A stretch of DNA of 60,583 nt, from IMG/VR virus record IMGVR_UViG_3300028872_000001, positions 1 to 60,583 of that record; one strand, 5' to 3'. This document shows positions 26,239-55,489 of the stretch, one piece after another. The notes beneath the pieces were generated by a model that was not told where the DNA came from, ran no database searches, and saw only the letters and a program-made list of their open reading frames with translations. A program made the translations under genes and the position numbers. How positions within the stretch are numbered: the stretch's first letter is position 1; every line of letters begins with the position of its first letter. The stretch comes from a virus.

Positions 26239-26243
26239 GGCGA

Positions 26244-26453
26244 TCAGCCCAGCAGGTCCAGGTCGACCTCCGGCAGCGGCGTAGGCGTCGGCTCCTCAGT
26301 AGGCGTCGGCTCCTCAGTAGGCGCGAACCGCGAGTCGTACTCCAGCATTGCTTGGTCTGCGTATTCGGCAGCGACCTCAATTACGCAGTTTCTCAGTGTG
26401 GCGAGGTATACCTCGCGCCAGAAGTCTCGGCAATCTTGCTGATGGTCGTTCAC
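26244..26453 (-). CDS. Small acidic protein with PTPTEE repeats (69 aa)
   Basis: GTG start overlapping the upstream stop. A helical N-terminus (RDFWREVYLATLRNCVIEVA) is followed by an acidic linker, EEPTPTEEPTPTPLPEVDLD, encoded by an 18-bp direct repeat (26281-26298 and 26299-26316). Disordered acidic tails like this can recruit partner proteins. Function unknown. Confidence 0.58.
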   Translation of the reverse strand: MNDHQQDCRDFWREVYLATLRNCVIEVAAEYADQAMLEYDSRFAPTEEPTPTEEPTPTPLPEVDLDLLG

Positions 26454-26761
26454 TTTGACATCTCCTCGAACACGTGAAGGGGCGGCGAGCTGGGACTACT
26501 CCACGACCCGATGTACTTGGCCTTGGCACCCCAGGGAAGCTTGTCGCAGTTGCGCAGCAGGTACATCGTGCGCTTCTCGGTCGTTGCTGGCGTGTCATCA
26601 TCCTCGGTGTACCGACACACCAGCCCGAAACCCCAACCGATCGGACCTGAAAGACCCAGGATCTCGGCGGTGTGAGGCACCTCGCACCACGCCTCTACGA
26701 TGCCGTCACCCGACCCCGTGGTCCTGGCAACGACAGTGAACTCGTCTACTACCGTTTTCAT
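26450..26761 (-). CDS. Hypothetical protein (103 aa)
   Basis: ATG with AAAGGAAA. It is beta-rich with aromatic residues (EAWCEVPHTAEILGLSGPIG, RNCDKLPWGAKAKYIGSW). No domain recognised. Lies between the primase and helicase genes in a coupled operon. Confidence 0.6.
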   Translation of the reverse strand: MKTVVDEFTVVARTTGSGDGIVEAWCEVPHTAEILGLSGPIGWGFGLVCRYTEDDDTPATTEKRTMYLLRNCDKLPWGAKAKYIGSWSSPSSPPLHVFEEMSK

Positions 26762-26773
26762 TCAGTTTTCCTT

Positions 26774-27223
26774 TCAATGCGTTACAGGTTTAAAGGCCCA
26801 GGCCTTGGCAAACAAAACAGCCACGCCCTTTTCTAATTCTCTCTTGATGGCATCCTGCGCCAGAATTGCGCGCTGACCGGCGGCATGTACCGCGATGGCG
26901 GCTCCGCGATGCGTGTCCGGCCCGGCGTCGTCCGGAGGTATGGCAGCAGCCACTTCGGCCTCAAAGCGAACCGATACTTGGGCCATACCTGAGCGAAACG
27001 CTTCTGAGAGTCTGTCCAGATCATTAGAAAAAGGGTCTTTGGCATAGAACGGCAGGGTCCGAAACGCCCACCCCCAGTCTACGAAGCCCGCCAGTTCAAT
27101 GCAGGATTCTTCGTTCACTTCGGTAATCTGGATTGGGCCCCGGCTTTCCAGTTCAGCCAATAGCTCTTCCCGATTGCTCGCTTGACACACCACAGCAAGA
27201 CGGTTCAACGTTACGGTGTTCAC
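26774..27223 (-). CDS. Hypothetical protein (149 aa)
   Basis: GTG overlapping the primase stop. N-terminal alpha/beta part (NREELLAELESRGPIQITEV), a central aromatic segment (FVDWGWAFRTLPFYAKDP) and helical end. First gene downstream of the primase half, at the split point. Not recognisable as a helicase remnant. Confidence 0.6.
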   Translation of the reverse strand: MNTVTLNRLAVVCQASNREELLAELESRGPIQITEVNEESCIELAGFVDWGWAFRTLPFYAKDPFSNDLDRLSEAFRSGMAQVSVRFEAEVAAAIPPDDAGPDTHRGAAIAVHAAGQRAILAQDAIKRELEKGVAVLFAKAWAFKPVTH

Positions 27224-28512: not shown

Positions 28513-28516
28513 CCAC

Positions 28517-29047
28517 TCACACCTTCGACTTCGGTTCTGCATCCTTGTCCAGCGTCTTCTTGAAGTAGATGCGCGCCGCGGTGTGGTAGATCATGATGCC
28601 TTCCGCCTTCGCCGAATAGGCCGCGTAACTGCCGGTGTCTTTCAGGTCAGCCAGCACGCGATCAACCACGCCCGTGTCGAACAACCCCTCCCAGAGAACC
28701 GGCACCACCGAGCAGCAAGCCGGAGGTGGCGTCTCCGCGGTCCAACGGCTGACGTTGAAGAGCGAGAACCTGCGCTCGGTGAGCCCGTAGCCGCGCTGGA
28801 TGCCTCGACCCCACCACTCGCCGAAGTGGCGGCCTGGCCCGAGCGCCCGGAGTTCGCCCTCGTGCTCTTTCACCCACGCCGCGAACCCGAAGTTGTCGTC
28901 CTCGGGCGTGATCCAGCGAGTGCGGGACCCGGCGCTGATGGTGCCATCTTCACCCACGCAGACCTGGGCGTTGGTGCCGTCGATCTTCTCGGTGATTACG
29001 ACTTGCCGGCTGAGCCGGGCGATCTTGCCAAACGATTCAAATTCCAC
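28517..29047 (-). CDS. RNA ligase, Rnl2/T4 gp24.1-like (176 aa)
   Basis: Nucleotidyltransferase that seals RNA (or nicked RNA/DNA). The adenylation site is EKIDGTNAQV with the attacking Lys at residue 21. Further motifs: HFGEWWGRGIQRGYGLTERR with LFNVSRW (motif III/IIIa region), AEGIMIYHT (motif IV) and IYFKKTL (motif V). I chose the GTG at 29047 because AAGGAG sits 6 nt upstream. It lacks a C-terminal accessory domain, so it is a minimal catalytic version. Placed in the replication operon between small membrane genes and the primase; possible roles are tRNA or RNA repair against host nucleases. Confidence 0.85.
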   Translation of the reverse strand: MEFESFGKIARLSRQVVITEKIDGTNAQVCVGEDGTISAGSRTRWITPEDDNFGFAAWVKEHEGELRALGPGRHFGEWWGRGIQRGYGLTERRFSLFNVSRWTAETPPPACCSVVPVLWEGLFDTGVVDRVLADLKDTGSYAAYSAKAEGIMIYHTAARIYFKKTLDKDAEPKSKV

Positions 29048-39782: not shown

Positions 39783-40339
39783 AGTTGATCTACAGCCCGG
39801 TGACCGGTGTCCGGCACGTTGACGTTTCACTGACGGCGGAGGAGTACCGGGAGCTGTGCCCGACCGAGTCGTGGGCCTTCAACCCTTTGACGGGGAAGCG
39901 TCGTGCCACGTACGACGTGGTGCACGACCCCCAAGGGCTGATGATCGTGGCTGGTGAGGAGTTGAAGGCAGCCGCGGGGGTGCTGGACAAGCAGCCGGTA
40001 CCGACCGAAGGTCGGATGCTCTACGACCCGGAGACCAACACCGTCATCGGGGTGCCCACCGACACCCTCACCGACACCCTCACCGACACCCTCACCGAAC
40101 GCGGCAAGCGCTACGGCAAGTTCACCGACCACGCTCAGATATCTCAGGACCTGGAAGACGTGATGCGGGCCTGCCCGAAGTGGTCGGCGCTGGCAGCCGA
40201 CCAGAAGGAGGCGTTGAAGATGGTCGTCCACAAGATCGCCAGGATCCTGAATGGCGACCCGAACTACGACGACTCGTGGGTGGACATCTCGGGCTATACC
40301 AAGCTGGTGGCCGACAGGCTGCAAGGAGTGTCACGGTGA
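39779..40339 (+). CDS. DUF6378-domain protein with TDTL repeats (186 aa)
   Basis: The C-terminal GKRYGKFTDHAQISQDLEDV and ADQKEALKMVVHKIARILNG, then DPNYDDSWVDISGYTKLV, is the DUF6378 family, common in phages and of unknown role. The middle contains three perfect 12-bp repeats (GACACCCTCACC, 40061-40096) encoding DTLTDTLTDTLT. The N-terminal half is beta-rich. ATGA coupling on the upstream side and GTGA on the downstream side. Confidence 0.8.
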   Translation: MKLIYSPVTGVRHVDVSLTAEEYRELCPTESWAFNPLTGKRRATYDVVHDPQGLMIVAGEELKAAAGVLDKQPVPTEGRMLYDPETNTVIGVPTDTLTDTLTDTLTERGKRYGKFTDHAQISQDLEDVMRACPKWSALAADQKEALKMVVHKIARILNGDPNYDDSWVDISGYTKLVADRLQGVSR

Positions 40340-40890
40340 GAGAACTTGCGCAACACATCCTCACCAACGCCAATGCGTTCGAGTGGTCCCTGCAAGGCAT
40401 GGGCTTGCTCCGACTTCACCTGCCAAACCACTGCCGGCTGCATGTCTGGGACTCGCGGTTCCGCAAGCCGGGCGTCAGCATGATCCACGACCACCTGCAG
40501 TGGGGCCTGCACTCGACCATCCTTGCCGGGGTGATGACGAACCGCCGCTACGTCGAAGACGCGAACGGCACGGAGGTCATGCACATGACTATCAAGCCGG
40601 GGTACGGGTACTTCAAGAAGTCGGAACCCGCGGGTATTCGGCTGCGAGCCCTCCCTGCTGAGTTCTACCGCCCTGGAGAGACCTACTCGCAAGAGCCGAA
40701 CGAGATCCACGAGACCGACGCCGACGACGGCACCGTCACGTTCATGCGCAAGTCGCCCACCACCGACGAGTCGGCCCGGGTGTTCTGGCCCCTTGGCCAG
40801 GAGTGGGGCAGCGCCGAACCGCGGATCGCGACCGCGGGTGAGGTGACCGCGATCACCGAGCACGCGCTGAAGCGGTGGTTCGGGGTATGA
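40336..40890 (+). CDS. Cupin-like (cysteine-dioxygenase-type) protein (184 aa)
   Basis: GTG overlapping the upstream stop. The beta-barrel pattern has the metal-binding block SMIHDHLQWGLHSTILAGVM (His-x-His) and a second conserved part around YSQEPNEIHETDADDGTVTF (Glu and His). Small cupins of this layout include thiol dioxygenases and sugar or small-molecule isomerases. It opens the sugar-chemistry block, so it may work on a sugar nucleotide, which is an inference. Confidence 0.68.
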   Translation: MRELAQHILTNANAFEWSLQGMGLLRLHLPNHCRLHVWDSRFRKPGVSMIHDHLQWGLHSTILAGVMTNRRYVEDANGTEVMHMTIKPGYGYFKKSEPAGIRLRALPAEFYRPGETYSQEPNEIHETDADDGTVTFMRKSPTTDESARVFWPLGQEWGSAEPRIATAGEVTAITEHALKRWFGV

Positions 40891-41489
40891 GCAAGCTGCT
40901 CGACTGGTCCGGCAAGACCTGCGTCATCCTGGCCAGTGGCCCAGGTCTCACCGAGGAGCAGGTCGAGCACGTCGGCGGCAGTACCGGCCCTTTGAGGTCG
41001 ATTGCCGTCAACTCCACCTTCAAGCCCGCGCCCTGGGCCGACGTAGCGTACGCAGGCGACATGCAGTGGTGGAAGAAGTACCACAAGGAGGTCCCCGCGC
41101 CGATGCAGCGCTGGACCTGCGACCACCAGGCTGAGCACCACTACAAGATCAACCGCGTGAAGGGTGTCAACCGGCCCGGCCTGGGCCTGAACGTGCTGCA
41201 CACGGGCGGGAACAGCGGGTACCAGGCGATCAATCTCGCGTTCCTGTTCGGCTGCCGGCGGATCCTGCTTCTGGGCTTCACCATGCGGGTGATCGACGGC
41301 CGCAAGCACTGGCATCCAGACCACCCGGCACCCCTCACTCAGGTGGTGCTTCCAGATGAGTGGCGCCACAAGTTCACGAAGATGGCGGATGATCTCAAGG
41401 CTCACGGCTGCACGGTTGTGAACTGCGATCCCTTGAGCGCGCTGACCTGTTTCCCGATGAGCACAATCGAAGAGGAGTTGAGGACATGA
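40887..41489 (+). CDS. MptE/DUF115-like (GT-fold) protein (200 aa)
   Basis: ATGA-coupled start. The N-terminus GKTCVILASGPGLTEEQVEH, then AVNSTFKPAPWADVAYAGDM with QWWKKYH, and the later HTGGNSGYQAINLAFLFGCR with ILLLGFTM, form the Rossmann-like pattern of DUF115 and related phage glycosyltransferase-like proteins. It may bind a nucleotide sugar. Chemistry not determined. First clear member of the glycan block. Confidence 0.72.
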   Translation: MSKLLDWSGKTCVILASGPGLTEEQVEHVGGSTGPLRSIAVNSTFKPAPWADVAYAGDMQWWKKYHKEVPAPMQRWTCDHQAEHHYKINRVKGVNRPGLGLNVLHTGGNSGYQAINLAFLFGCRRILLLGFTMRVIDGRKHWHPDHPAPLTQVVLPDEWRHKFTKMADDLKAHGCTVVNCDPLSALTCFPMSTIEEELRT

Positions 41490-41887
41490 ACAGTATCCCG
41501 ATACCTGAAGGCATGCCGGGTTTGATCTCGGCAACGTTGGTCGGCAGCCGCGTGACGTGCAGTCCGCCACCCGCCGACACCGACCTGGACGTGCTGGTAC
41601 TGGTAGGCGAGGACCAGTGGGACGAAGCTCAAGCGTTCCTGGTGGCGAACGGCTACGGACACGACGGTTCGGACATCAGCGACAAACTCGGCTTCGTGTC
41701 CGACTCGTGCTTCAAGTCCTACTCGCTCGGCGAGGTGAACATCATCGTCACACACGACGGGGATTTCCACGATCGGTTCTTGGCTGCGTCGTCGGTCGCC
41801 AAACGGTTGAACCTGCTGCAGAAAGCTGACCGTGTAGCGCTGTTCCAGGCTGTGCTCTACGGCAACTCTTGCGTGGACTTCTCGTGA
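41486..41887 (+). CDS. Nucleotidyltransferase-fold protein (133 aa)
   Basis: The pattern LVGSRVTCSPPPADTDLDVL is the hG[GS]...DxD signature of the pol-beta-like nucleotidyltransferase superfamily (Gly-Ser and two Asp for metal). The C-terminal helix KRLNLLQKADRVALFQAVLY fits the fold. Phage relatives are common beside sugar and modification genes. Possible roles: nucleotidyl transfer to a sugar, protein or RNA. Confidence 0.78.
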   Translation: MNSIPIPEGMPGLISATLVGSRVTCSPPPADTDLDVLVLVGEDQWDEAQAFLVANGYGHDGSDISDKLGFVSDSCFKSYSLGEVNIIVTHDGDFHDRFLAASSVAKRLNLLQKADRVALFQAVLYGNSCVDFS

Positions 41888-42204
41888 GCAGCACTGAAGC
41901 CTATGTCGTGGACGGCGGTGAAGAACGCCGTCTGCGCAACCCCAACGAAGGTCCGGACGGCGAGATGGTACCGACAGGCGTGCAGCGGCGGGCTGGGCTC
42001 ACCGGCGTGCTCCACCTGCTGGACCAGATCGCCCGGCGCGACGAGAGCCGTGACTTCCGAGTCGCGGCACGCGCTCAGGCGAACGTCGTCCGCGGGCTCC
42101 TGGGCCTGGAGACCAAGGACTACGGTGGTGAGGTCCAGGCCTCGCCTTCGCAACTGAAGATCGGCAACGTCACCGACGTGCTGGTGATCGAGAACAAGCC
42201 ATGA
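41884..42204 (+). CDS. Hypothetical protein (106 aa)
   Basis: GTG overlapping the previous stop. Contains LTGVLHLLDQIARRDESRDF and FRVAARAQANVVRGLLGLET, mostly helical. No family recognised. Coupled to the next gene by ATGA. Confidence 0.6.
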   Translation: MSSTEAYVVDGGEERRLRNPNEGPDGEMVPTGVQRRAGLTGVLHLLDQIARRDESRDFRVAARAQANVVRGLLGLETKDYGGEVQASPSQLKIGNVTDVLVIENKP

Positions 42205-42995
42205 GCCGTATTGCCGTCGTCAAGGTTCGCAAAGAGCCGCACTACCGCCGCCAGGCCATCGAGTCGGGCCTCCTGCGCTGCGGGTTCGCGCTCGCGGCCA
42301 GCATCAAGGCCCCGCAACTCCACAAGGACGACTGGCTGGTGCTCTGGAACCGCAAAGCTGGCGTCGAGGAGGCGGAGGCCGAGGACTGGGAGCGCCGGGG
42401 CGGCAGCGTCATCGTCATGGAGAATGGCTACTTAGCTAAGGTAGACAAGACCATGTACGCGATCAGCGTGGGCCAGCACAACGGCGCGGGCTGGTTCCCG
42501 GTGGGCGACGAGGACCGATTCACGAAGCTCGGGTTCGAGATCAAGCCGTGGCGCGAGGGTGGTGAGTACGTGCTGGTGTGCGCACAGCGCGGCATCGGCT
42601 CGAAGCTCATGGCCAGCCCGCCAGGGTGGGATCGCAAGATGGCCGAAAGCCTCAAGAAGATCATTCTGCTTCCGGTCAAGGTGAGGTCTCACCCTGGCAA
42701 TTTCGTCGCCAAGGTGCCGCTGGTGACCGACTTGGCGAAGGCTGAATCGTGCGTCATCTGGTCCAGCGGCTCAGGGGTCAGGGCTCTGGTGGAGGGCGTG
42801 CCGGTGAACTACAGCGCGCCTCACTGGGTCTGCGAGCAGGCAGCAATCTCGTGGAGAGCGCGTCACGGTGGTGGGGTTCCGGTTTGCGACCTGTACCGTA
42901 AAGAGGCCCTCCACCGCATGAGCCACGGGCAGTGGCACGTAGACGAAATCACAACCGGCGAACCCTTCGCCAGAATCTTGGAAGGACTGAAATGA
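42201..42995 (+). CDS. Capsule-synthesis-like (KpsC/S-type) glycosyltransferase-like protein A (264 aa)
   Basis: The N-terminal half resembles a Rossmann-like domain (SRIAVVKVRKEPHYRRQAIE, DDWLVLWNRKAG, GGSVIVMENGYLAKV). The segment SCVIWSSGSGVRALVEGVPV has the S-x-x-G-x-x-A-L-x-x-G-x-P motif of the GT-B capsule enzymes KpsC/KpsS (Kdo transferases). It shares FEIKPWR and LVCAQRG with the protein at 43150, so the two are paralogues. Substrate unknown. Confidence 0.65.
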   Translation: MSRIAVVKVRKEPHYRRQAIESGLLRCGFALAASIKAPQLHKDDWLVLWNRKAGVEEAEAEDWERRGGSVIVMENGYLAKVDKTMYAISVGQHNGAGWFPVGDEDRFTKLGFEIKPWREGGEYVLVCAQRGIGSKLMASPPGWDRKMAESLKKIILLPVKVRSHPGNFVAKVPLVTDLAKAESCVIWSSGSGVRALVEGVPVNYSAPHWVCEQAAISWRARHGGGVPVCDLYRKEALHRMSHGQWHVDEITTGEPFARILEGLK

Positions 42996-43153
42996 GCGAC
43001 GAGGAAATGAAGCGTGACGCGGCCCGCTGGCGCTGGCTGCGCGAGCAGTCGAAGCAGGTGGCGCCTGTGGCGGCCGTGGTGTGGCAGACGCCACCCTTCG
43101 ACGCCACCGACCTGGACACCGCGGCGGATCGCTACGTGGAGCATGACGAATGA
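42992..43153 (+). CDS. Small hypothetical protein (53 aa)
   Basis: ATGA-coupled on both sides, placed between the two KpsC/S-like genes. The N-terminus SDEEMKRDAARWRWLREQSK, with DTAADRYVEHDE at the end, is a common phage small-protein pattern of unknown function. Confidence 0.62.
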   Translation: MSDEEMKRDAARWRWLREQSKQVAPVAAVVWQTPPFDATDLDTAADRYVEHDE

Positions 43154-43884
43154 CCCCCTACCCCACCCTTGGCAAGCCGAAAGCCAAAGTCCTCCTCGAC
43201 GCCTTCATGGAGGGCTGCGGCGATCTGAAGGAGAACGCCGCGGTCTTCTACGGCGTCAACGAGACCAACATCGAGCACTGGCGCGAGGTGCGCCGGTTCC
43301 GGCGGCCGTACTACTCGATCGACAACTCGTACTTCGACCAGACCCGCGGCTTCAAGGAGCCGCACGCGCAGTTCCGGATCACGAGGAACAGGTTCCAAGT
43401 GCCCGCGGTGGACCTCAAGTCTGACGGCTTTCGGTTCGCGGCGTTGGGCATCAAGCTGCAGCCGTGGCGGCACCCGACCGCCACCAGCCACACGCTGGTG
43501 TGTCCGCAGTCGGACGCGTTCATGCGTGACATCGCCCAGTACCCGGGCGACTGGGCGAAGGACACGATGCAGAGCCTGGCCCACGCCTCGCCGGTGGTGT
43601 TCCGCGCGTGGGGCCGCGACAAGCTGAAAGCTGCAAGCACCCTGCCGCACGACCTGGAGAACGCGCACCTGCTCGTGACCCACAGCTCCGCCGCCGCGGT
43701 TACGGCGCTCATCCACGGGGTGCCGGTTCAGGTGTCGAGCATGTCGGCGCTGTGGGGTTGCAATTTTGACGTTGGCAACGACAATTGCCCGGTCCGGCTC
43801 AACGTCATGGGTGTGCTGGCGGACAACCAATTTTCACTTTTGGAAATCAAACAGGGGGTGGCGTGGAAATGGCTAAGCAAGTGA
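43150..43884 (+). CDS. Capsule-synthesis-like (KpsC/S-type) glycosyltransferase-like protein B (244 aa)
   Basis: The sequence has PYYSIDNSYFDQTRGFKEPH and ALGIKLQPWRHPTATSHTLV (with VCPQSD). The segment HLLVTHSSAAAVTALIHGVP, then VQVSS, is the same late GT-B nucleotide-binding motif seen in protein A. It is a distant paralogue of 42201-42995. ATGA coupling with the small gene. Probably acts on the same sugar or lipid pathway, but substrate and product are not predictable. Confidence 0.65.
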   Translation: MTPYPTLGKPKAKVLLDAFMEGCGDLKENAAVFYGVNETNIEHWREVRRFRRPYYSIDNSYFDQTRGFKEPHAQFRITRNRFQVPAVDLKSDGFRFAALGIKLQPWRHPTATSHTLVCPQSDAFMRDIAQYPGDWAKDTMQSLAHASPVVFRAWGRDKLKAASTLPHDLENAHLLVTHSSAAAVTALIHGVPVQVSSMSALWGCNFDVGNDNCPVRLNVMGVLADNQFSLLEIKQGVAWKWLSK

Positions 43885-44426
43885 AAAGCGGATGGTTCAC
43901 AACTCCCGGTCGCCCCGGCGACCGCACGCTCCAGGACCAGATGAAGGGCTTGGACCACGTGTTCGAGTTCGTCCACGGCAAGACCGTGCTCGACATCGGT
44001 TGTGCTGAGGGCATGCTCACGGCCGAGATGGCTCACCGCGGCGCGGTGGCGGTGCACGGCGTCGAGGTGGTCAAGGCCCACGTCGAGACCGGCCGCAGGG
44101 TGCACGCAGACCTGGCGGCCTGCTTCGAGGTCGGCGACGCCAACGTGTGGGTTCCGAAGCGCAAGTACCACGTCGTGCTGCTGCTGGCGGTGCTCCACAA
44201 GCTGAAGAACCCCACCGAGGCGTGCGCCCGGTTCGCGGACGCAGCCATCGACATGGTGGTCATTCGCCTGCCGCCCGAGCACGCACCCACGATCATCGAC
44301 TCGCGCAGCGGTAACAACCCCCACCACATCGACCGAGTGATGGAGGTTCGGGGCTGGCGGTTGGAGCGGGTGACGCGTGGGCACTTCATCGAGTGGTGCG
44401 GGACGTACGTGAGGAGTGGCGCGTGA
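43869..44426 (+). CDS. SAM-dependent methyltransferase (185 aa)
   Basis: The class I fold shows the SAM-binding motif VLDIGCAEGMLTAEMA, then AVHGVEVVKAHVE (acidic residue for the ribose) and VVLLLAVLHKLKNP (motif IV region). I chose the ATG at 43869, 16 nt before the preceding stop. It is followed by a coupled small gene. Likely a sugar or protein methyltransferase by position; a small-molecule target is equally possible. Confidence 0.82.
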   Translation: MAKQVKSGWFTTPGRPGDRTLQDQMKGLDHVFEFVHGKTVLDIGCAEGMLTAEMAHRGAVAVHGVEVVKAHVETGRRVHADLAACFEVGDANVWVPKRKYHVVLLLAVLHKLKNPTEACARFADAAIDMVVIRLPPEHAPTIIDSRSGNNPHHIDRVMEVRGWRLERVTRGHFIEWCGTYVRSGA

Positions 44427-44644
44427 AGATGGAAGTCAAGCACTACGATGCTGAGGCCCGGAAGTTCCTCGCGAATCTGAAGACCCACAAGGAGGACCCC
44501 GATCGGCGGGAGGTGGTCGGTCAGATCACGGTGGAGTCCCGCGGACGGCAGTTCGTCAGGAACATCCGGGACGGGGATGTCCTGGACATCGAAGCTGTAC
44601 AACGAGAGGTTCAGACCCTCCACACCAAGAGGCGCAAGCTGTGA
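44423..44644 (+). CDS. Small hypothetical protein (73 aa)
   Basis: GTG overlapping the methyltransferase stop. Charged and mixed alpha/beta (YDAEARKFLANLKTHKEDPD, VGQITVESRGRQFVRNIRDG). Stop overlaps the GTG of the next methyltransferase. No family recognised. Confidence 0.6.
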   Translation: MKMEVKHYDAEARKFLANLKTHKEDPDRREVVGQITVESRGRQFVRNIRDGDVLDIEAVQREVQTLHTKRRKL

Positions 44645-45165
44645 CCGACCTGACCCCGCTGTACCGTGACATGGCCGCAGGCGGCCAGTCGTTCTTCGGC
44701 CTCTCGATTCTTCAGCACGAGAAGACGATCCGCAAGCTGGTCCGCAAAACCGGCGCCAAGACGATCCTCGACTACGGCTGCGGTCGCGGGGACGCCTGGG
44801 GCGCTGGTGGTAACCTGCACCGCGACATCGGCGTCAAGCGCAAGGACGTGACGCTGTACGACCCGGCGTTCAAGGGCAACGCCCGGGTGCTGCCCGAGGG
44901 CCGCAAGTTCGACGGCGTGCTCTGTAGTGACGTGCTGGAGCACGTGCCTCGCGAGGACGTGGACGCGCTGATCGACAGGCTGTTCGGGCACGCCAAGCTG
45001 TTCGTCTGGGCCAGCGTCTGCTGCCGGCCGGCCAAGAAGTGCTTTCCGGACGGCACCAACCTGCACGTCACCATCGAGCCGTACGAGTGGTGGCTCAAGA
45101 AGTTCCACGGCATGAACGCAACGCGGGTTGCGCCTCTCGACTTCTGCTTGACGGAGACACCATGA
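44641..45165 (+). CDS. SAM-dependent methyltransferase, second copy type (174 aa)
   Basis: TILDYGCGRGDAWGAGG is the motif I glycine loop; DVTLYDPAFKG follows as motif II and FDGVLCSDVLEHVP is motif IV, typical of small phage methyltransferases. GTG start coupled to the upstream gene. Clearly distinct from the gene at 43869. Possible targets: sugar, nucleoside or host protein. Confidence 0.8.
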   Translation: MTDLTPLYRDMAAGGQSFFGLSILQHEKTIRKLVRKTGAKTILDYGCGRGDAWGAGGNLHRDIGVKRKDVTLYDPAFKGNARVLPEGRKFDGVLCSDVLEHVPREDVDALIDRLFGHAKLFVWASVCCRPAKKCFPDGTNLHVTIEPYEWWLKKFHGMNATRVAPLDFCLTETP

Positions 45166-45392
45166 CCGATGCTGACATTCACCGGCTTACCCAGATGCCG
45201 GACAAGGAACTCATCCAGTACCTGAAGACCCTCCCGGGAGCCTTGACCGTAGAAGTGGCAAGGAGCCTTCTCGTGCGCCTGGACCGCCTGCACGCGGCGG
45301 TTGATGACGTGGCGGATGACGTGGGGCGGTACACACGAGGTGATCCGCAACACCCGCTCCGAGCCGCGATGGTGTTCCATGGGTCTCGGTGA
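45162..45392 (+). CDS. Small hypothetical protein (76 aa)
   Basis: ATGA overlap upstream. Helical (HRLTQMPDKELIQYLKTLPG, ARSLLVRLDRLHAAVDDVAD). It overlaps the following glycosyltransferase gene by 14 nt. No family recognised. Confidence 0.58.
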   Translation: MTDADIHRLTQMPDKELIQYLKTLPGALTVEVARSLLVRLDRLHAAVDDVADDVGRYTRGDPQHPLRAAMVFHGSR

Positions 45393-46128
45393 TTTTTTGA
45401 TGGCATCCGGCCGAGCCCGGAAGCTGTACCAGGAGAACAAGCTCCCGGTGCTCATCCTTGGCCGGAACGGGACTCGCGCCTGGTCCGACCTCTGGGATGG
45501 TTTGCCATACATCGCCCGCCGGCCTGCGGGCCGCCGGTACCAGACCATCGTGGACGGCTCGGGCGTGCGCCCCTACATCGCGGCCAAGACCGCGGAGCGG
45601 TGGACGTGGAAGCCGTACGGCCCCACGCCGGCCCAGATCGTGTTCACGCCTGCCGAGCTGGCGTTCGCGGAGCTGTACCGCGGGATGGTGATGGTCGAAC
45701 CGAACGTGAAGGCCATCGGGCACACGAACAAGGCCTGGAGTTGGGGTCGGTGGCAGGAGGTGGTGCGCGCGATGCCGGAAACGCGGTTCGTGCAGTGCAT
45801 CTCGAACGGTCTCCAGCCGACCTTGCACGGCGTGTCGTGGGTGGTGTCGCCGTCCTTCCGCCACGCCTGCGCCGTGCTCTCGGTCTGCAAGGCGTTCGTC
45901 GGTACTGAGGGCGGCCTCATGCACGCGGCTGCGGCCGTGGGCACACCGGCCGTGGTATTGTTCAGCGAGTTCATCAGCCCGGACATCACCGGCTACACCG
46001 CGCACCGCAACATCCGGCATGCCGGGCCAGCGTGCGGCATGCGCACCGACTGCCCCGGCTGCCGGACGTCCATGGAAGCCATCTCGGTTGACGAGGTGGT
46101 TCGCAACTTGAAGGAGATCCTGGAATGA
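45379..46128 (+). CDS. GT9-like (heptosyltransferase/ADP-heptose type) glycosyltransferase (249 aa)
   Basis: GT-B fold. The N-terminal loop MGLGDFLMASGRARKLYQEN is the family's first glycine loop, and FVGTEGGLMHAAAAVGTPAV, then VLFSEFISPDITGY, is the conserved donor-binding region of GT9 (the G-x-G-G-x-x-H-x-A motif). CGMRTDCPGC at the end is a Cys-rich tail. The ATG at 45379 lacks a good ribosome site. The frame is open upstream, so a GTG at 45340 or an ATG near 45304 may be the true start. Confidence 0.75.
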   Translation: MGLGDFLMASGRARKLYQENKLPVLILGRNGTRAWSDLWDGLPYIARRPAGRRYQTIVDGSGVRPYIAAKTAERWTWKPYGPTPAQIVFTPAELAFAELYRGMVMVEPNVKAIGHTNKAWSWGRWQEVVRAMPETRFVQCISNGLQPTLHGVSWVVSPSFRHACAVLSVCKAFVGTEGGLMHAAAAVGTPAVVLFSEFISPDITGYTAHRNIRHAGPACGMRTDCPGCRTSMEAISVDEVVRNLKEILE

Positions 46129-46775
46129 AACTTCACAAAGGCTGGTGGTTCCCGGACCATGAGCAGCACCTCACGGCCTGGATGGACAGCAAGAAGAACA
46201 AGGTCGAGATGAACGGTCGGTCGGCCTACCAAGGATCGAAACAGATCGCGGCGCTCAAGCGCTGCACTTCGTTCCGGCTGGCCGTGGATGTCGGAGCGCA
46301 CGTCGGGCTCTGGAGCCGCAACCTGGCGTTCGCGTTCGACACCGTGTTCGCCTTCGAGCCGGTAGCCGAACACCGCGAGTGCTTCCAGAAGAACGTCACT
46401 GGAGTTGGCCAAGTCACTCTGTTGCCGTACGCGCTCGGGGCCAAGCCCAGCATGGTCTCCATTGACACCGAAGTCGGAAGCAGCGGTAACAGCGCGGTGG
46501 GCGGGCCTGGTGAGATCGAGATGCGCACCCTCGACAGCTTCGGGCTCAACGACCTGGACTTCCTGAAGATCGACACCGAAGGCTTTGAAGAGAACGTCCT
46601 GCGCGGCGGTGAGCAGACGATCAAGGCTTGCAAGCCAGTGATCGTCGTGGAGCAGAAGCGGGAGATGGCCTCGCGGTTCGGGCTACCCACGCTGGGCGCC
46701 GTGCACCTCCTGGAGTCGTGGGGCTACAAGGTGGTCGAGGAGATAAGCGGTGACTACATCTTGGTGCCGACATGA
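46125..46775 (+). CDS. FkbM-family methyltransferase (216 aa)
   Basis: VDVGAHVGLWSRNLAFAFDT is the SAM loop, followed by VFAFEPVAEHRECFQKN and, later, LDSFGLNDLDFLKIDTEGFE with NVLRGGEQTI, the diagnostic FkbM pattern. Family members O-methylate sugars and related metabolites. ATGA coupled to the GT9-like gene, so methylation of a glycan is the simplest reading. Confidence 0.87.
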   Translation: MKLHKGWWFPDHEQHLTAWMDSKKNKVEMNGRSAYQGSKQIAALKRCTSFRLAVDVGAHVGLWSRNLAFAFDTVFAFEPVAEHRECFQKNVTGVGQVTLLPYALGAKPSMVSIDTEVGSSGNSAVGGPGEIEMRTLDSFGLNDLDFLKIDTEGFEENVLRGGEQTIKACKPVIVVEQKREMASRFGLPTLGAVHLLESWGYKVVEEISGDYILVPT

Positions 46776-46972
46776 AACTCAAGAAGTACATCGTGGACGG
46801 GAAACCGGTAGAGGCCGGAACGCACAGGTCGGCGCTACGGAAAGCACGGGGCTACAAGTCCTTCCCTGGGCACCACGTGGAGGAGTGCGCTGAAGGAACT
46901 GAAGGCTGTGCTCGTGTCGAGGACGGCGACGGGAATCTGATCTGTTGGGTAGTCGAAGTGGAGCACGGTTGA
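46772..46972 (+). CDS. Small hypothetical protein (66 aa)
   Basis: ATGA overlap with the FkbM gene. Basic start (KLKKYIVDGKPVEAGTHRSA), Cys/acidic end (ECAEGTEGCARVEDGDGNLI). No family recognised. Confidence 0.58.
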   Translation: MKLKKYIVDGKPVEAGTHRSALRKARGYKSFPGHHVEECAEGTEGCARVEDGDGNLICWVVEVEHG

Positions 46973-46974
46973 AC

Positions 46975-47670
46975 ATGAGAATCCTGATCGGCTACGACGA
47001 ACGCGAAGCGGAAGCCGCGCGTGTCGCGCTCAAGTCGCTGCGCAGCGTGTCCAACGTGCCGGCTGAACTGCTGGACGCGGAGAAGCTGGCGGCCCACGGC
47101 CTGCTCAACAGGCTCGGCGACCACCGGGGCGGCCAGGACTATGACCTGGTGTCCAACGCGAAGAAGAGCACCCGCTTCGCGGTCTCGCGCTTCCTCACTC
47201 CGATCCTGTGCCAGGAGGGTTTCGCACTCTTCACCGACTGCGACGTGGTGTTCCTGCGCAACCCGGAAGAGATGTTGAACGAGATCGAACCGGGCAAGGC
47301 CGTCTACGTCGTGAAGCACGACTACACGCCATCCACCCGGTTCAAGATGGTGAATCAGGAGCAGAGCAACTACGTCAGGAAAAACCAATCTTCGGTGATG
47401 TTGTTCGACTGCTCCCACCCCGCCAACCGCCGGCTCACGCTCTGGGACGTGAACAACCGGCCTGGCCGCGACCTGCACAGGTTTTACTGGCTGCACGACG
47501 ACGAGATCGGTGACCTGAGCCCGGCCTGGAACTGGCTCTGCGACGAAGTAGAGAGGCCCGACAACCTGGGCATAGCCCATATGACTCTAGGAGGGCCTTG
47601 GATACCAGGCTGGGTCACCGGTAAGGGGTGTTTCGACAACGAGTGGTGGGAGGCGGCGCGCAATGAGTGA
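46975..47670 (+). CDS. GT8-type glycosyltransferase (231 aa)
   Basis: GT-A fold. ILIGYDEREAEAARVALKSL at the N-terminus, then SRFLTPILCQEGFALFTDCD with VVF, contains the DxD metal/UDP site (DCD, about residues 90-92). A later NQSSVMLFDCSHPANRR and RFYWLHDDEIGDLSPAWNW, then a His in GIAHMTLGGPW, match GT8/glycogenin-like enzymes. Last confident gene of the plus-strand operon; a hairpin follows. Confidence 0.82.
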   Translation: MRILIGYDEREAEAARVALKSLRSVSNVPAELLDAEKLAAHGLLNRLGDHRGGQDYDLVSNAKKSTRFAVSRFLTPILCQEGFALFTDCDVVFLRNPEEMLNEIEPGKAVYVVKHDYTPSTRFKMVNQEQSNYVRKNQSSVMLFDCSHPANRRLTLWDVNNRPGRDLHRFYWLHDDEIGDLSPAWNWLCDEVERPDNLGIAHMTLGGPWIPGWVTGKGCFDNEWWEAARNE

Positions 47671-50111: not shown

Positions 50112-53100
50112 TCAGGGTTTGGGTTTCTTCATCGCGTCGCGCAGGGCCTGCACGATGCCTTTGCCGGCGAACGCATTGTCCACGGTCACCTCGCCGGTTG
50201 GTGTGACGCGCCCGATGCGGTTGCCTTGCTTGTTCACCGCCTCGAAACCGCCAGTCTTCACCGGCCGCAAGGTCACGCCTTCGGGTAAGGGTCTTTCTTT
50301 GCCGGCTTCGGCTTTGGTATCGGGAACGGGCTTTTCTTTGCGGGTTTCGGCGGTTTGACCATTTTGGTCTCCTTTGAGGTCTGAAGCCTTGGCACGAGGG
50401 CCGTCAGCTTCCTTGTTGATGATATTCTTGCTCTGCATCTCCTCCACGAATGCGAGACCGTCAGTGGTCTGCACGCGGCCTGGAGCGATATCGTGACCGG
50501 CATCCCGGACCGCCCGGTACATCATCTCCGCCAAGCCGCGCCTTCTGAGGTACGGGGCGACCTTCACGTTCTCGGCCACCAGAGTGCCGTCCTTGCGGAT
50601 CGCGAAGTCCACGAACCCCCGCCGCTGACCGGTCACCGGGTCATGCACCTCCACCAGGATCGCCTTCTCCTTCTTGTCGGCCCCAAGCACCTGTTCACTG
50701 ACCTTGACCTGGTAGGGGTCGCCCTTCTTGTCGAAGCCTTCAAGCTGACCGCGAGGCCCCTTCTCCAGCCGCACCTCGGCCTCCGGAGCCTTCGCCTCGC
50801 CTTTGCCGGGCGCGGTGAACAACTCCTTGGCCTCACCAACAGGGATCGCCTCTTCGACGCCCGAGTCGGTGACGTGAGTGGCCTCACCGGTGGGGAGCTT
50901 CTTCATCTCCGGTGCCCGACCGGTGGCGGGCTCGTTGGGCACCTCCGTGGCCTTGCCCACCGGGATCTTGCCGACCTTCTCGGTCTTGATCTCGGGCTGA
51001 CCTTCGGTCACCTCACCGACCGGGATCTTCTCCGGCTTCTCCAGGTCCTCAGCGCGCGCCAGCAGGCGCTCTTTCAGCTTCGCGTCCTTGACCCCCGCGG
51101 CCACCTGGCGCAACTCGGCCACGTCGGCCTTGAGCTTCTCGGCTTCGGCCTGGGCCTTGATCTCGCGCTTGAGCTTGGCGGCCTCCGCGGTCAGCGCCTT
51201 CTTCACGGCTTCTGACTTCGCACCCTGCTGCAACTGTTCGATCTCCGCCAGGCGCGGGTCGGTAGGCGCGACCTCGGTGGCCTCACCCACCGGGATCTTG
51301 CCGGGGTTCTGGGCTTCGAACTCGTCGATCGTCGCCAGCGCGTCCTGCATCGCGCGGCCGGTGGGCTCCGTGGCGCCGACCTCCTTCGGAGGACCGCCCA
51401 CCATGGCGTCGGGCAGGTCCGGACGCCCAGGCACGGCCGGGATCTGCTCGCCGGCTCGCCGGCCGGGAGTTGGGGGTTCGGCCACCACCTGCTTCACCGG
51501 GCCGGCATCCGACTGGTTCTCTCGGGAGATCCGTAGGTCGGCGCCACCGGGGCGCACCCGGGCAGGCCCGCCGGCCTCATCGACCGCGGGCACCAGCCCC
51601 TCAGTCGGAACCACCTCCTGGCGGCCTGCGGACGCCGTAGCGCCGGGCGCGGTCTCCCAGTCTGGCGTCAAGTCGCCCAGCGGGCCCGCGGGCGGTGCAC
51701 CGTCCTCCCGAGCCGGGAATGGTGACTGCTCGGCGGTGAGTTCCGGCTTGGGGGCCGGGGCTTGGGGTTTCTTGCCTGCCATGCGCTTCTGCATGAATTC
51801 GCTACCCAGGGCGGCACGCGCCCCGGGCCGGGCGACGAGCGCCGCCAGCGCGGTGGTCGGGCCGTGAAGCGCCGCCAGCAGAATGTCGCGGAAGTCAGGG
51901 CCGGTACCGCCGGACTTGCCCTTCTTCTGTGCGAGGCCCTCCTCGCCGAACTGCTTGGCGAACTCAGCGATCTGCTTGGCACCTCCGGTGAGCTTGGCAC
52001 CCTTCTCCAGCGCCCGTTTGTAGGCCATGGCGTTCACCTCGCCCGGCTTGCCGTCCATGGCCTCGTCCAACAGGTACGTCTTGGCGATGCGCACCCGGGC
52101 AGCCTGGTACTTGGCCACCGCGTCGGCGAGTTCCGGCGAGCGCTTCGTCTCCGCCATGCGTGTCAACGCCCGGTCCAAGGAGTTGTCCACCGCAGATGCA
52201 GCCGCACGGTACGAGGCCCCGAGCTTCTTGTCGCCGGCCCGGAACGCCTTGTCGGCCTCGTTGCGCAGGTCCTTCACCACCTCGATCGCGGAGGCCGAAT
52301 CCACATCCGCCTTGCGCAGGCCTTCGACGCGCTTGATGATGGGATTGTTCAGCAGCTCCGGGAAGTCCTTGGCGGCCTCGGTGTACGGCCTGGTGATGTT
52401 GTCCAGGTCCTTGCCGTACTGGGCGTCGTTCTCGAACCGGCCAACGTCCTTCACGACCGCGTAGTTCTCACCTTCCTGCTTGCGGATCGCGGCTGTGGCT
52501 TCAGGCGTCGCCGGCACGTCGTCAGGCAGGCCCACGTCCTGACGGGCGAGCCTGGAGGTGTTCTCGGCGTTGTGGGCGGAGAACTCCTTCTCCAGCCGCC
52601 CAGAACCGGCTGCGGTCTGAGTCATGCGGGCAGCCACACCGGCATTGGCCGCCTTCGGGGTCAGCTTGTACCCGGCCTCGTGCGCGGCTTCGATGCCGGC
52701 CCGTTCCGGGGCCGCGAGGGCGGCTTCCTTAGCAGCCTTCACTTCTCGGGCAACCGTGCGGGTGGCGTTGAACTTCCGGTTCGCGTCCAGCGCCGCGGAG
52801 CCCGCGGTACGCAGGTCGCGACCCACCATCCGGCTGGCACTGCTGAGTGCTGCGGCTTCAGCCGGCAGGCCTCCCAGAGGTGCGAGTTGGGACAGACCCT
52901 CGGCCGCCTGGGCTGCACGCTCTTGCCCAAGTTCACTGCGGGGGTTGTAGACGAGGCTGGCGGCCCCCTCCTTGGCACCCGCACCGATCGCGTCCAGCGC
53001 CGGCACGCTGCCGTCCGCCTGGCGACGCAGCCCGCCGCTGGCAGCCGAGCCTGCGAACGCCCCGAGGCCCCCACCCACGGCCCCGAGCAACCCGCCGGTG

Positions 53101-53339
53101 GCCGCGCTCGCCAGGTGCATGCCGGTTTCCACCAGCGCCGTGATCTTCTGCGTCAGCGTGGGTGGGGCAGACGACCGCCCCGGCAGGGAAGGTTGACTGA
53201 CCCGGCCGGAGGCGGGGTCCAGTGTCGGGACGCTGGAGAAGGCCGGCGCGGGCGCAGCATCGCCTCCGGCGTCCATCTCGAAACCAGGAGGTGGCGGCGG
53301 ATCTTCCTCGAAGCCGGGAGGCAGTGCAGGATCATTCAT
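50112..53339 (-). CDS. Internal virion / ejection-type protein with KIPVGEATEV repeats and GNAT-like C-terminus (1075 aa)
   Basis: Begins with duplicated PPGFE units (ALPPGFEEDPPPPPGFEMD), common at the start of podovirus internal proteins, then a Gly/Ala membrane-active-like stretch (TGGLLGAVGGGLGAFAGSAA). A long helical body follows (about 100-450). From about residue 690 the motif [K/A]IPVGEATEV recurs five times with variation (for example GKIPVGEATEVAPTDPR, EKIPVGEVTEGQ, GKIPVGKATEV). The end (VAPYLRRRGLAEMMYRAVRD, TTDGLAFVEEM) resembles a GNAT acetyltransferase acetyl-CoA loop. I chose the ATG at 53339 (ATGA overlap); 53354 is possible. Confidence 0.75.
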   Translation of the reverse strand: MNDPALPPGFEEDPPPPPGFEMDAGGDAAPAPAFSSVPTLDPASGRVSQPSLPGRSSAPPTLTQKITALVETGMHLASAATGGLLGAVGGGLGAFAGSAASGGLRRQADGSVPALDAIGAGAKEGAASLVYNPRSELGQERAAQAAEGLSQLAPLGGLPAEAAALSSASRMVGRDLRTAGSAALDANRKFNATRTVAREVKAAKEAALAAPERAGIEAAHEAGYKLTPKAANAGVAARMTQTAAGSGRLEKEFSAHNAENTSRLARQDVGLPDDVPATPEATAAIRKQEGENYAVVKDVGRFENDAQYGKDLDNITRPYTEAAKDFPELLNNPIIKRVEGLRKADVDSASAIEVVKDLRNEADKAFRAGDKKLGASYRAAASAVDNSLDRALTRMAETKRSPELADAVAKYQAARVRIAKTYLLDEAMDGKPGEVNAMAYKRALEKGAKLTGGAKQIAEFAKQFGEEGLAQKKGKSGGTGPDFRDILLAALHGPTTALAALVARPGARAALGSEFMQKRMAGKKPQAPAPKPELTAEQSPFPAREDGAPPAGPLGDLTPDWETAPGATASAGRQEVVPTEGLVPAVDEAGGPARVRPGGADLRISRENQSDAGPVKQVVAEPPTPGRRAGEQIPAVPGRPDLPDAMVGGPPKEVGATEPTGRAMQDALATIDEFEAQNPGKIPVGEATEVAPTDPRLAEIEQLQQGAKSEAVKKALTAEAAKLKREIKAQAEAEKLKADVAELRQVAAGVKDAKLKERLLARAEDLEKPEKIPVGEVTEGQPEIKTEKVGKIPVGKATEVPNEPATGRAPEMKKLPTGEATHVTDSGVEEAIPVGEAKELFTAPGKGEAKAPEAEVRLEKGPRGQLEGFDKKGDPYQVKVSEQVLGADKKEKAILVEVHDPVTGQRRGFVDFAIRKDGTLVAENVKVAPYLRRRGLAEMMYRAVRDAGHDIAPGRVQTTDGLAFVEEMQSKNIINKEADGPRAKASDLKGDQNGQTAETRKEKPVPDTKAEAGKERPLPEGVTLRPVKTGGFEAVNKQGNRIGRVTPTGEVTVDNAFAGKGIVQALRDAMKKPKP

Positions 53340-55489
53340 TTGAGGGGTACCCATTGACCGTTCTGGAGCATCAGTTTCTCACCGGTCTTCGGGTTGGTGG
53401 CGGTACGCACGCCAGGCGGTGCTTTCGGAGCCGCAGCACCACCAGGCTGTTGCAGCCCGAGGCCACGGGCTGGCGCAGTGGCCGCACCCTGAGCCTTCTG
53501 GGCCGCAACCACGTCTTTCAACGTCAGGTTGGGGTTGTCCTCCTGGCCCTTGGTCAACTGCGACAGATCGCGCTGAGTGAACGGTACCGACTTCCGGATG
53601 TTGGCTACGACTTCCTCGGCGTGATCCCGCATTTCCTTCGGCACCCGCGGGTTGGCGATCGTGGTCTCCAACCCGGCCTCGACGATCTGTCGGGTCTGCG
53701 CCAGCTTCTGCAGCTTCGTCAGGTTGGTGTCGCCTTCCTTGAACAGCACGGAATCCATCTGGTGAGTCAACGAACCGGAGGGTGCGAGGCCCGCGGACTC
53801 GATGGCGGCCAGAGAGCGTTGGAAGCCGGTAGCCATGACGTTGTACGACTGCGCCTCCTGCCCGGTCATCTTGTTGGCGAGCACCTCCTTGGCGGCATCC
53901 ATCAACCCGACACCTTGCTTGCGCCCACCGAACAGACCGGTGCTGGCTGTCAGCGGGAGGCTCGTGACGCTCTCCAGATCCTTGGCAGCTTCATTTCCGG
54001 ACAACAGCACCCGTTGGATGAATATCGCTTCCCGAGACCCGAGTTCGCTTTGCTTGCCCATGTCGGCGCCAGGCTTGTACTGCAGCGCCAGGGACAGCAT
54101 GCGCCTCCGTTCCTCGCCCTTGGTGCTGATGTCGGTGGGCTTAATCTTCCCTTCGGCCAGGGCACGAACCACATCCGCATCCGCCTTCGGGAGTGTCTTC
54201 AGGAAATCCTCACCGTGCAGGTCAGGATTCGCCAGAACCTCACCTGGCGTAGCATTGGGTGCGGCCTTTGTCGGCCTGATGCCTGACATGTTGGCCTTGC
54301 GCATCGCCGCCGCCTCTTCGGGCGTGATGTCGCCGTCTACTTCTGCCTGGTCGATGTCCGCCATCTTGGCCCGGTACGTAGACACCCCGGCGCCTGGCGA
54401 GAACAGCTTCGGCGTTGCACCTTTCTTCAACTCCGTCTGGTTGACCACCTTGCCGGTGATGTCGATCTCACGGTCCAGCACGCGGTCACCGAGATCCACC
54501 TTCTCACGGGTTACGGTCTTCTTGCTGGGTTTCGTGAGGGAGTAGAACTCGTCGAAGTACTTCTGCACCTCCGGCCCGACCTCACGCTCGCCCTGCGCCA
54601 TCTTCTCGGCGATGTCCGGGCGCTGCAACGCGGTCGTCAGCACACCCAGGTTCCCAACCCAATCCAACGACTTCTTGACGCTGATGGGTTCGACCTGCTC
54701 GTCCTGCACCGAGGCACCGCGCGTCATGGGGGCGTCGTAGTAGCGCTCCTGGGTGTCGCCGGGGCGCTGCACGTAGACACGGATGACCGGGAACACCTTG
54801 TCCGGGTCCATCCGCCCATTGGCGTCCTTCGCCGGCACGAGGCGGATCACCTCCTTGCGGGTGATCTTGCCGTCCGAGGGCGCCTCCTCACCCACACCCT
54901 GCCGCAGCCGCGGGGCGAACAGCCCGTTGACGGCCTGGAGCGTGAGGCCCTGGTTGTTGGTCTCGATGCCGGCTTGCAGGTCGTTGGCGTGCTGCGGCAT
55001 GCCGGCCAGGTCCTTCATCGTCATGCCGGTGCCCACGGTCACGGCCTTGAACGCCTGGGCCGGTGACATGCTGCCCAGGTCAAGCTGGCCAGCGGCGAGG
55101 CGTGAGGCGTCGTCGAGCGCCGCCTGACGCAGCTTCGCCAGCCGGCCGGACACCACGCTGTACTCCTCGGCCGTGCCGGCCGGGACTGGCGCCCCTGCAG
55201 TCTGCGCAGCGGTGCTGGCGGCCAGGAGTTCAGCCCGGCGGCTTGTCAGCGCCGTGGTCGCCCGAGCGGTGGCGTCGCGACGTTCTGCGTCCTGCAGCCG
55301 GGTCTCGGCTCGCTGGTCCGCGCTGCGCCGGAGCCCGAGTTCCTCCTCGGCTCGGGTGTCGGCCTGTGCCTGGCGGGCTTCCTGGACACCACGCTGGCGC
55401 TTCTCCTCCGCCGCAGCGTCAGCACGCAGCCCGAGGCCGAAGCCTGTCTCAATCCCGCGGGCGGCGCCCGCACCGAAGCTGGTGGCCAT
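53336..55489 (-). CDS. Internal virion / ejection protein (717 aa)
   Basis: An Ala/Arg/Glu-rich helical N-terminus (ADAAAEEKRQRGVQEARQAQ) is followed by long helical and acidic regions (TPEEAAAMRKANMSGIRPTK, LALQYKPGADMGKQSELGSR), ending with GVRTATNPKTGEKLMLQNGQ and WVPLK, a C-terminal tag shared by many podovirus internal proteins. Such proteins leave the capsid to form the trans-envelope channel at infection. Stop overlaps the next start. Confidence 0.75.
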   Translation of the reverse strand: MATSFGAGAARGIETGFGLGLRADAAAEEKRQRGVQEARQAQADTRAEEELGLRRSADQRAETRLQDAERRDATARATTALTSRRAELLAASTAAQTAGAPVPAGTAEEYSVVSGRLAKLRQAALDDASRLAAGQLDLGSMSPAQAFKAVTVGTGMTMKDLAGMPQHANDLQAGIETNNQGLTLQAVNGLFAPRLRQGVGEEAPSDGKITRKEVIRLVPAKDANGRMDPDKVFPVIRVYVQRPGDTQERYYDAPMTRGASVQDEQVEPISVKKSLDWVGNLGVLTTALQRPDIAEKMAQGEREVGPEVQKYFDEFYSLTKPSKKTVTREKVDLGDRVLDREIDITGKVVNQTELKKGATPKLFSPGAGVSTYRAKMADIDQAEVDGDITPEEAAAMRKANMSGIRPTKAAPNATPGEVLANPDLHGEDFLKTLPKADADVVRALAEGKIKPTDISTKGEERRRMLSLALQYKPGADMGKQSELGSREAIFIQRVLLSGNEAAKDLESVTSLPLTASTGLFGGRKQGVGLMDAAKEVLANKMTGQEAQSYNVMATGFQRSLAAIESAGLAPSGSLTHQMDSVLFKEGDTNLTKLQKLAQTRQIVEAGLETTIANPRVPKEMRDHAEEVVANIRKSVPFTQRDLSQLTKGQEDNPNLTLKDVVAAQKAQGAATAPARGLGLQQPGGAAAPKAPPGVRTATNPKTGEKLMLQNGQWVPLK

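What the first reader, a model, noticed from the sequence alone, without database searches (positions are those of the whole stretch)
40336..47670. Phage-encoded glycan synthesis and methylation block
A single coupled run encodes a cupin, an MptE/DUF115-like protein, a nucleotidyltransferase, two KpsC/S-like paralogues, three methyltransferases including FkbM, a GT9-like and a GT8 enzyme, with small genes between. A GT-A-like gene sits in the tail operon (358-996). Together this is enough to build and decorate a small glycan. Targets could be capsid or tail proteins, phage DNA bases, or host LPS to exclude other phages. The combination, sitting in the replication operon, is not one I recognise as a described system.
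Basis: partly seen in the sequence, partly recalled or inferred. Interest (0 to 1): 0.7.

Follow-up and report, generated by a model that had tools for sequence, protein, structure and literature searches.

The report
Phage sugar-chain building gene cassette
This phage carries a compact set of eight sugar-attaching and methylating enzymes that recurs in unrelated phages, often among the genes for the virus shell and tail, so it probably decorates virus particles with a small methylated sugar chain made from host precursors.

Summary
The block is real. Its core is eight genes (40887-47670): DUF115/GT42-fold, two KpsC-fold paralogues, two class I methyltransferases, GT9, FkbM and a GT8-like GT-A enzyme. 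Ten further, diverged viral contigs carry all eight in the same order, and three carry seven. Subsets recur in Caulobacter jumbo phages, other siphoviruses and a Rubrivivax MAG. Within this podovirus lineage no contig that spans the slot lacks it. The cupin, the nucleotidyltransferase and the 358-996 gene do not travel with it.

The AlphaFold model of KpsA matches retaining Kdo transferases (KpsC, WbbB). It keeps their donor-binding Gln and RxHP motif but has an invariant Gly where they have the catalytic Asp. DUF115 matches sialyltransferase CstII.

In unrelated carriers the genes sit next to head or tail genes. No membrane protein, GtrA or thymidylate-synthase-type base hydroxymethylase is present. 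Best reading: a mobile cassette that builds a small methylated glycan on virion proteins from host LPS-core-type donors. Target, sugars and activity are inferred. No description was found in the open library searched.

The parts
40336..40890 (+).
   Evidence: phrog_4784 4.5e-8, unknown function; no Pfam hit; found only in near-identical contigs
40887..41489 (+). DUF115/MptE-like, GT42 (CstII)-fold glycosyltransferase candidate; core gene 1
   Evidence: phrog_4603 2e-44; AF2 pLDDT 94; Foldseek best hits CstII 1ro7/1ro8, then archaeal MptE-type HPPK
41486..41887 (+). Accessory gene called a nucleotidyltransferase; hGS..DxD-like motif visible by eye; not conserved with the cassette
   Evidence: phrog_15166 3e-27, unknown function; no Pfam or NCBIfam hit
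41908..42204 (+). Small accessory ORF
   Evidence: coding score; weak matches in L101 and L088 only
42201..42995 (+). KpsA: KpsC-fold GT-B enzyme with invariant Q129 and RxHP but Gly at the nucleophile position; core gene 2
   Evidence: AF2 pLDDT 90; Foldseek KpsC/WbbB/KrkA prob 1.0; motif counts
43150..43884 (+). KpsB: paralogue of KpsA; Q conserved, nucleophile Asp and HP absent; core gene 3
   Evidence: hhalign 99.8% with KpsA; motif counts; PF20471 putative GT 0.0087
43863..44426 (+). MT1: class I SAM methyltransferase; core gene 4 (start may be 43941)
   Evidence: PF13489 2.6e-9
44641..45165 (+). MT2: class I SAM methyltransferase; core gene 5
   Evidence: PF13489 6e-8, phrog_24759 7e-23
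45304..46128 (+). GT9 (heptosyltransferase-like) glycosyltransferase; core gene 6
   Evidence: PF01075 3.4e-7; heptosyltransferase II 1psw 7.5e-6; TIGR02195 1.4e-7
46125..46775 (+). FkbM-family O-methyltransferase; core gene 7
   Evidence: PF05050 4.7e-20, TIGR01444 1.9e-21
46969..47670 (+). GT8-like GT-A glycosyltransferase with invariant DxD (residues 88 and 90 of the ATG-started 231-aa form, 46975-47667); core gene 8
   Evidence: PF03407 5e-4, phrog_28018 2e-37

Best explanation
The core is a mobile, modular phage cassette that builds a short, O-methylated oligosaccharide on a virion protein (capsid, or a tail or tail-fibre protein) in the cytosol of a Gram-negative host. KpsA, KpsB and the DUF115 enzyme are proposed to transfer CMP-activated ulosonic-type sugars (Kdo or nonulosonates), GT9 an NDP-heptose-type sugar, and the GT8-like enzyme a hexose. 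FkbM, MT1 and MT2 would O-methylate the product. No nucleotide-sugar synthesis genes are needed if donors come from the host's LPS-core pool. The glycan would shield or tune the particle surface. Shown: the gene set, conserved order, folds, motifs and neighbourhoods. Inferred: donors, order of steps, acceptor protein and benefit.
For: All eight genes in one order in ten further diverged contigs, seven in three more. Of 16 contigs chosen only by capsid protein, 11 keep GT8 and 10 keep KpsA; the five without either do not span the slot. In unrelated phages the cassette or a subset lies inside the virion module: terminase-portal-capsid-DUF115-FkbM (L059); portal-cassette-head-tail adaptor (L081); capsid-portal-adaptor-head closure-cassette-major tail-tape measure (L099); protease/capsid fusion-cassette (L100); and after the tail genes and before lysis in CcrColossus and CcrBL9, with the same position in phage C1. 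The lone DUF115 homologue of D3 directly follows the capsid gene region. KpsC and CstII folds. No transmembrane segments by hydropathy. Virion glycosylation is known in mycobacteriophages (as summarised in PMC12619734).
Against: In the window's own lineage the cassette is at the end of the replication operon, on the strand opposite the virion genes. No acceptor was identified. Structural modules can pick up unrelated cargo genes, so neighbourhood is indirect. KpsA and KpsB lack the catalytic Asp of the Kdo transferases they resemble, so their chemistry is uncertain. P1 pmgO and pmgP, from the P1 region that matches the DUF115 gene, are dispensable for plaque formation (PMC10695390).
Confidence: 0.6

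Rival explanations
1. The cassette modifies the host surface (LPS core or capsule) during infection or lysogeny, to exclude competing phages or protect progeny from sticking to debris.
For: KpsC-, GT9- and GT42-type enzymes are LPS/capsule enzymes by origin. LPS-core assembly itself uses cytosolic GT9 and Kdo enzymes. Some carriers are prophage-like or carry an integrase.
Against: No membrane segment in any cassette protein and no GtrA in 12 records. Placement inside head/tail modules is odd for lysogenic conversion. The window record has no tyrosine integrase match.
Confidence: 0.17
2. The enzymes hypermodify phage DNA bases with a glycan against restriction.
For: Phage GTs that add diverse glycans to DNA are described (Pyle et al. 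2024, cited in PMC12619734). In the window the block lies next to replication genes.
Against: No thymidylate-synthase-type hydroxymethylase in 17 carrier records, with the control ringing. The cassette occurs in head/tail modules of other phages. FkbM is a family of sugar and small-molecule O-methyltransferases (own knowledge).
Confidence: 0.07
3. The enzymes act on a small molecule, a host protein or an RNA during infection (counter-defence or host takeover) rather than on virion or envelope.
For: In the window lineage the block is in the replication operon. MT1 weakly matches a defence methyltransferase model (mad2, 2.6e-8), as generic methyltransferases do.
Against: Eight co-inherited glycan-type enzymes are excessive for a single small modification. 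Structural-module placement elsewhere.
Confidence: 0.1
4. KpsA, KpsB and DUF115 are degenerate, non-catalytic relatives and only GT9, GT8 and the methyltransferases act, adding single sugars. This can be true together with the virion reading.
For: Loss of the QXXXD Asp in both KpsA and KpsB, and of HP in KpsB.
Against: Invariant Q, HPG, E, H and other active-site-like residues across 20 diverged KpsA proteins point to a selected site.
Confidence: 0.15

Closest known systems
Mycobacteriophage virion glycosylation (Freeman et al. 2023, as summarised in PMC12619734)
   Same: Phage-encoded glycosyltransferases thought to act on capsid or tail proteins
   Different: There, glycans on capsid and tail-tube C-termini are reported. 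Here eight co-inherited genes of other folds, with three methyltransferases, in phages of Gram-negative hosts; glycan not shown
KpsC / WbbB / KrkA retaining beta-Kdo transferases (GT107, GT99, GT140)
   Same: Fold; Q of the QXXXD motif; (K/R)XHP CMP-binding motif in KpsA
   Different: Invariant Gly in place of the nucleophile Asp; shorter (264 aa); KpsB lacks HP; phage cassette, no capsule export genes in it
CstII (GT42) and DUF115/MptE proteins; phage D3 orf7 and P1/P7 DUF115 homologues
   Same: Fold and phrog_4603 family; D3 orf7 also lies beside the capsid gene
   Different: In D3 the annotated surroundings hold the gene without the Kps-GT9-FkbM-GT8 set, and KpsA and GT9 searches find no D3 or P1 match
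Caulobacter jumbo phages (CcrColossus gp126-131, CcrBL9 gp522-527)
   Same: Six of the eight enzymes in one block; annotated mostly as hypothetical
   Different: Different order; sits between tail and lysis genes; block lacks MT1 and the FkbM gene of the window type
LPS heptosyltransferases (GT9, WaaF)
   Same: Pfam family and C-terminal half
   Different: Phage protein of 274 aa, about 70 aa shorter than the 348-residue WaaF chain; acceptor unknown

Membership tests
Retaining beta-Kdo transferases (GT99/GT107/GT140) | KpsC-type two-domain fold | tested here: met
   KpsA AF2 model (pLDDT 90); Foldseek 6mgd 2.8e-7, 5fa0, 9yfx, prob 1.0
Retaining beta-Kdo transferases (GT99/GT107/GT140) | Nucleophile Asp in a QXXXD motif | tested here: not met
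   KpsA: Q129 20/20 but +4 is Gly 20/20; KpsB: Q120 20/20, +4 is Phe or Trp (motif from PMC12887879)
Retaining beta-Kdo transferases (GT99/GT107/GT140) | (K/R)XHP CMP-binding motif | tested here: met
   KpsA: H and P 20/20, R 16/20. KpsB does not meet it (Trp or gap at that place)
Retaining beta-Kdo transferases (GT99/GT107/GT140) | Transfer of Kdo from CMP-Kdo | not testable with these tools
   needs purified enzyme
GT42 / DUF115 sialyltransferase-like | CstII-like fold | tested here: met
   1ro7/1ro8 E 3e-4 to 7e-4, prob 1.0; MptE-type HPPK also prob 1.0
GT42 / DUF115 sialyltransferase-like | Catalytic His and donor CMP-Sia | tested here: inconclusive
   H141 invariant, H146 at least 90%, but equivalence to the CstII catalytic His was not established
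GT9 glycosyltransferases | Match above Pfam cut-off | tested here: met
   PF01075 30.3 bits against a cut-off of 22
FkbM methyltransferases | Match above curated cut-off | tested here: met
   PF05050 72.8 bits; TIGR01444 77 bits
Phage virion glycosylation systems | GT genes within or beside virion genes | tested here: met
   L059, L081, L099, L100, CcrColossus, CcrBL9; not the case in the window itself
Phage virion glycosylation systems | Glycan present on a virion protein | not testable with these tools
   needs virion MS
DNA base glycosylation systems (T4-like) | Thymidylate-synthase-type hydroxymethylase supplying hydroxymethyl bases | tested here: not met
   PF00303 absent in 17 carrier records
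Serotype conversion (gtr) modules | GtrA flippase and membrane GTs | tested here: not met
   PF04138 absent in 12 records; no transmembrane segments in cassette proteins

The most novel reading that the evidence does not exclude
A horizontally mobile cassette lets phages of Gram-negative bacteria build an LPS-inner-core-like, methyl-capped oligosaccharide (ulosonate, heptose, hexose) directly on their virion proteins from host LPS precursors. It would use a KpsC-fold transferase family that has lost the double-displacement Asp and therefore works by a different, probably inverting, mechanism. Gene gain and loss in the cassette would vary the glycan between phages.
Probability: 0.25. Interest if true: 0.82.

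Novelty: new variant of a known kind. Interest (0 to 1): 0.6.

Why it matters
Phage virion glycosylation is demonstrated in only a few phages (own knowledge). This cassette is widespread in uncultivated podoviruses and also present in phages isolated on Caulobacter crescentus, a tractable host, so a hidden virion surface chemistry becomes directly testable. If the KpsC-fold enzymes are active, they would also define a glycosyltransferase family that keeps the Kdo-transferase donor site but not its nucleophile.

Tried and rejected
- Linking 358-996 to the set: no relative in 18 carrier records, no Pfam or NCBIfam hit.
- Counting the cupin and nucleotidyltransferase as core: conserved only in near-identical contigs.
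- Filing KpsA as a GT107 Kdo transferase: rejected because the nucleophile is absent.
- Reading capsid-protein relatives without the cassette as true negatives: G020 ends at the helicase and G023, G027, G031 and G033 lack the helicase, so the slot is not covered.
- PDB sequence searches with KpsA, KpsB and a phage KpsC-like protein gave nothing useful.
- Promoter and terminator scans in the block were uninformative.
- Literature: no paper describing this cassette was found in nine searches of the open library. Subscription papers and preprints were not searched.

Full report
WHAT IS THERE. The window is a 60,583-base IMG/VR virus record classed linear. It encodes a podovirus-like phage: terminase, head-tail adaptor/portal, major head protein and internal virion proteins on the minus strand at the left, PolA, gp2.5-like SSB and helicase on the plus strand, and lysis and further virion genes on the minus strand at the right. 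By major capsid protein the nearest isolates are Rhizobium phages such as RHph_TM3_14A (42% identity), whose annotation shows no glycan block between the helicase and the convergent genes. The reported block fills 40336-47670 as a run of overlapping or abutting genes directly after the helicase and a DUF6378 gene.

THE CORE IS EIGHT GENES. Family searches, alignments and structure prediction give, in order: DUF115 (40887-41489), KpsA (42201-42995), KpsB (43150-43884), MT1 (43863-44426), MT2 (44641-45165), GT9 (45304-46128), FkbM (46125-46775) and a GT8-like enzyme (46969-47670). KpsA and KpsB are names used in this report only. tblastn of every block gene against fetched viral loci shows that these eight travel together. 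Counting one locus per contig and leaving out near-identical contigs, ten other contigs hold all eight in the same order (L101, L107, L012, L088, L097, L100, L087, L089, L109, L008) and three hold seven in that order (L108, L040, L090). In those aligned, KpsA is 46-65% identical to the window copy, so they are not clones; two of them (L008, L087) look close to each other. The cupin-like gene, the nucleotidyltransferase-like gene and the small ORFs are not part of the conserved set, nor is the gene at 358-996.

DISTRIBUTION. Of 16 further contigs picked only by their capsid protein, 10 have KpsA and 11 have GT8. The five that lack both do not cover the slot: G020 stops at the end of the helicase gene, and G023, G027, G031 and G033 contain no helicase. 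Content is modular: some relatives lack GT9, FkbM or a methyltransferase in the stretches read. Outside this lineage, Caulobacter jumbo phages CcrColossus, CcrBL9 and C1 carry DUF115, KpsA, KpsB, GT8, MT2 and GT9 in one block. L099 and L081 carry five-gene versions in other orders. A Rubrivivax MAG contig carries seven of the eight (all but GT9), followed by genes that read as terminase and portal (that reading is by eye).

NEIGHBOURHOOD. In carriers unrelated to the window the genes lie among virion genes. L059: terminase, portal, major head protein, DUF115, FkbM. L081: portal, other genes, cassette, head-tail adaptor. L099: major head protein, portal, adaptor Ad1, head closure Hc1, cassette, major tail protein, tape measure. 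L100: protease/major head fusion, about 3 kb, cassette. L040: tail-type and portal-type matches, cassette, neck protein. In the Caulobacter phages the block lies between tail genes and endolysin (for phage C1). The lone DUF115 gene of Pseudomonas phage D3 follows the major head protein. In the window lineage, by contrast, the cassette ends the replication operon. These neighbourhoods are the main reason to prefer a virion target.

ENZYMES. The KpsA model (pLDDT 90) best matches solved KpsC, WbbB and KrkA retaining beta-Kdo transferases. Those enzymes share a QXXXD motif whose Asp is the covalent nucleophile and a (K/R)XHP motif that binds CMP (PMC12887879; PMC10148158). In 20 KpsA proteins the Gln is invariant and HP is invariant (R two before the H in 16), but the +4 position is an invariant Gly. 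The equivalence rests on the fold match and on the same strand-Gln-helix-strand-RxHP layout, not on a coordinate superposition. KpsB is a clear paralogue that keeps the Gln and lacks both the Asp and the HP. So KpsA looks like a CMP-ulosonate-type transferase that cannot use the known double-displacement route; an inverting route is my inference. DUF115 models confidently (pLDDT 94) and matches CstII sialyltransferase first, archaeal MptE-type HPPK second. GT9 matches heptosyltransferase II. The GT8-like protein has an invariant DxD.

RIVALS. DNA glycosylation would normally need a hydroxymethyl-base synthase; PF00303 is absent from 17 carrier records while the controls ring. Host-envelope modification of the gtr kind needs GtrA, absent from 12 records, and no cassette protein has a membrane span by hydropathy. 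Neither rival is excluded: a base could be hydroxylated after replication, and LPS-core enzymes are cytosolic. PADLOC finds no defence match beyond a generic methyltransferase resemblance.

VERDICT. Virion glycosylation is the best-supported role (0.6), with acceptor, sugars and benefit all inferred. The kind of system (phage virion glycosylation) is known from mycobacteriophages; this gene set and its KpsC-fold enzymes without the nucleophile are not described in the papers I could search.

Noticed in passing
18396-18723 and 21757-22190: Two in-frame tandem arrays: seven copies of a 33-base unit (11-aa repeats) in ORF 18259-18732, and a run of a 9-base unit (Ala-rich 3-aa repeats) in ORF 21400-22218.
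   Followed up: no
24035-28539 (-): Primase/helicase-type matches are split over two ORFs about 1.5 kb apart (27220-28539 N-terminal part, 24035-25738 C-terminal part), with small ORFs between.
   Followed up: no
28517-29044 (-): RNA ligase (PF09414, 3.8e-13) next to the primase gene.
   Followed up: no
50112-53351 (-): 1079-aa protein conserved in cassette-bearing relatives, with a GNAT-like stretch near its C-terminus (PF14542 8e-4).
   Followed up: no
59186-60583 (-): Tail-fibre/decoration-like protein with the highest Ser+Thr content in the window (21.5%), a possible acceptor to test.
   Followed up: partly
L118:1732-9017: Phage DSL-LC06 (29.8 kb) carries another multi-gene set annotated as methyltransferase, heptosyltransferase, FkbM, two glycosyltransferases, KpsC-like and sialyltransferase genes around a DNA-packaging gene; possibly a further cassette variant.
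   Followed up: no
KpsA model against BFVD: KpsA-fold proteins also occur in Tetraselmis virus 1, an algal giant virus, and DUF115 hits occur in Tetraselmis records.
   Followed up: no
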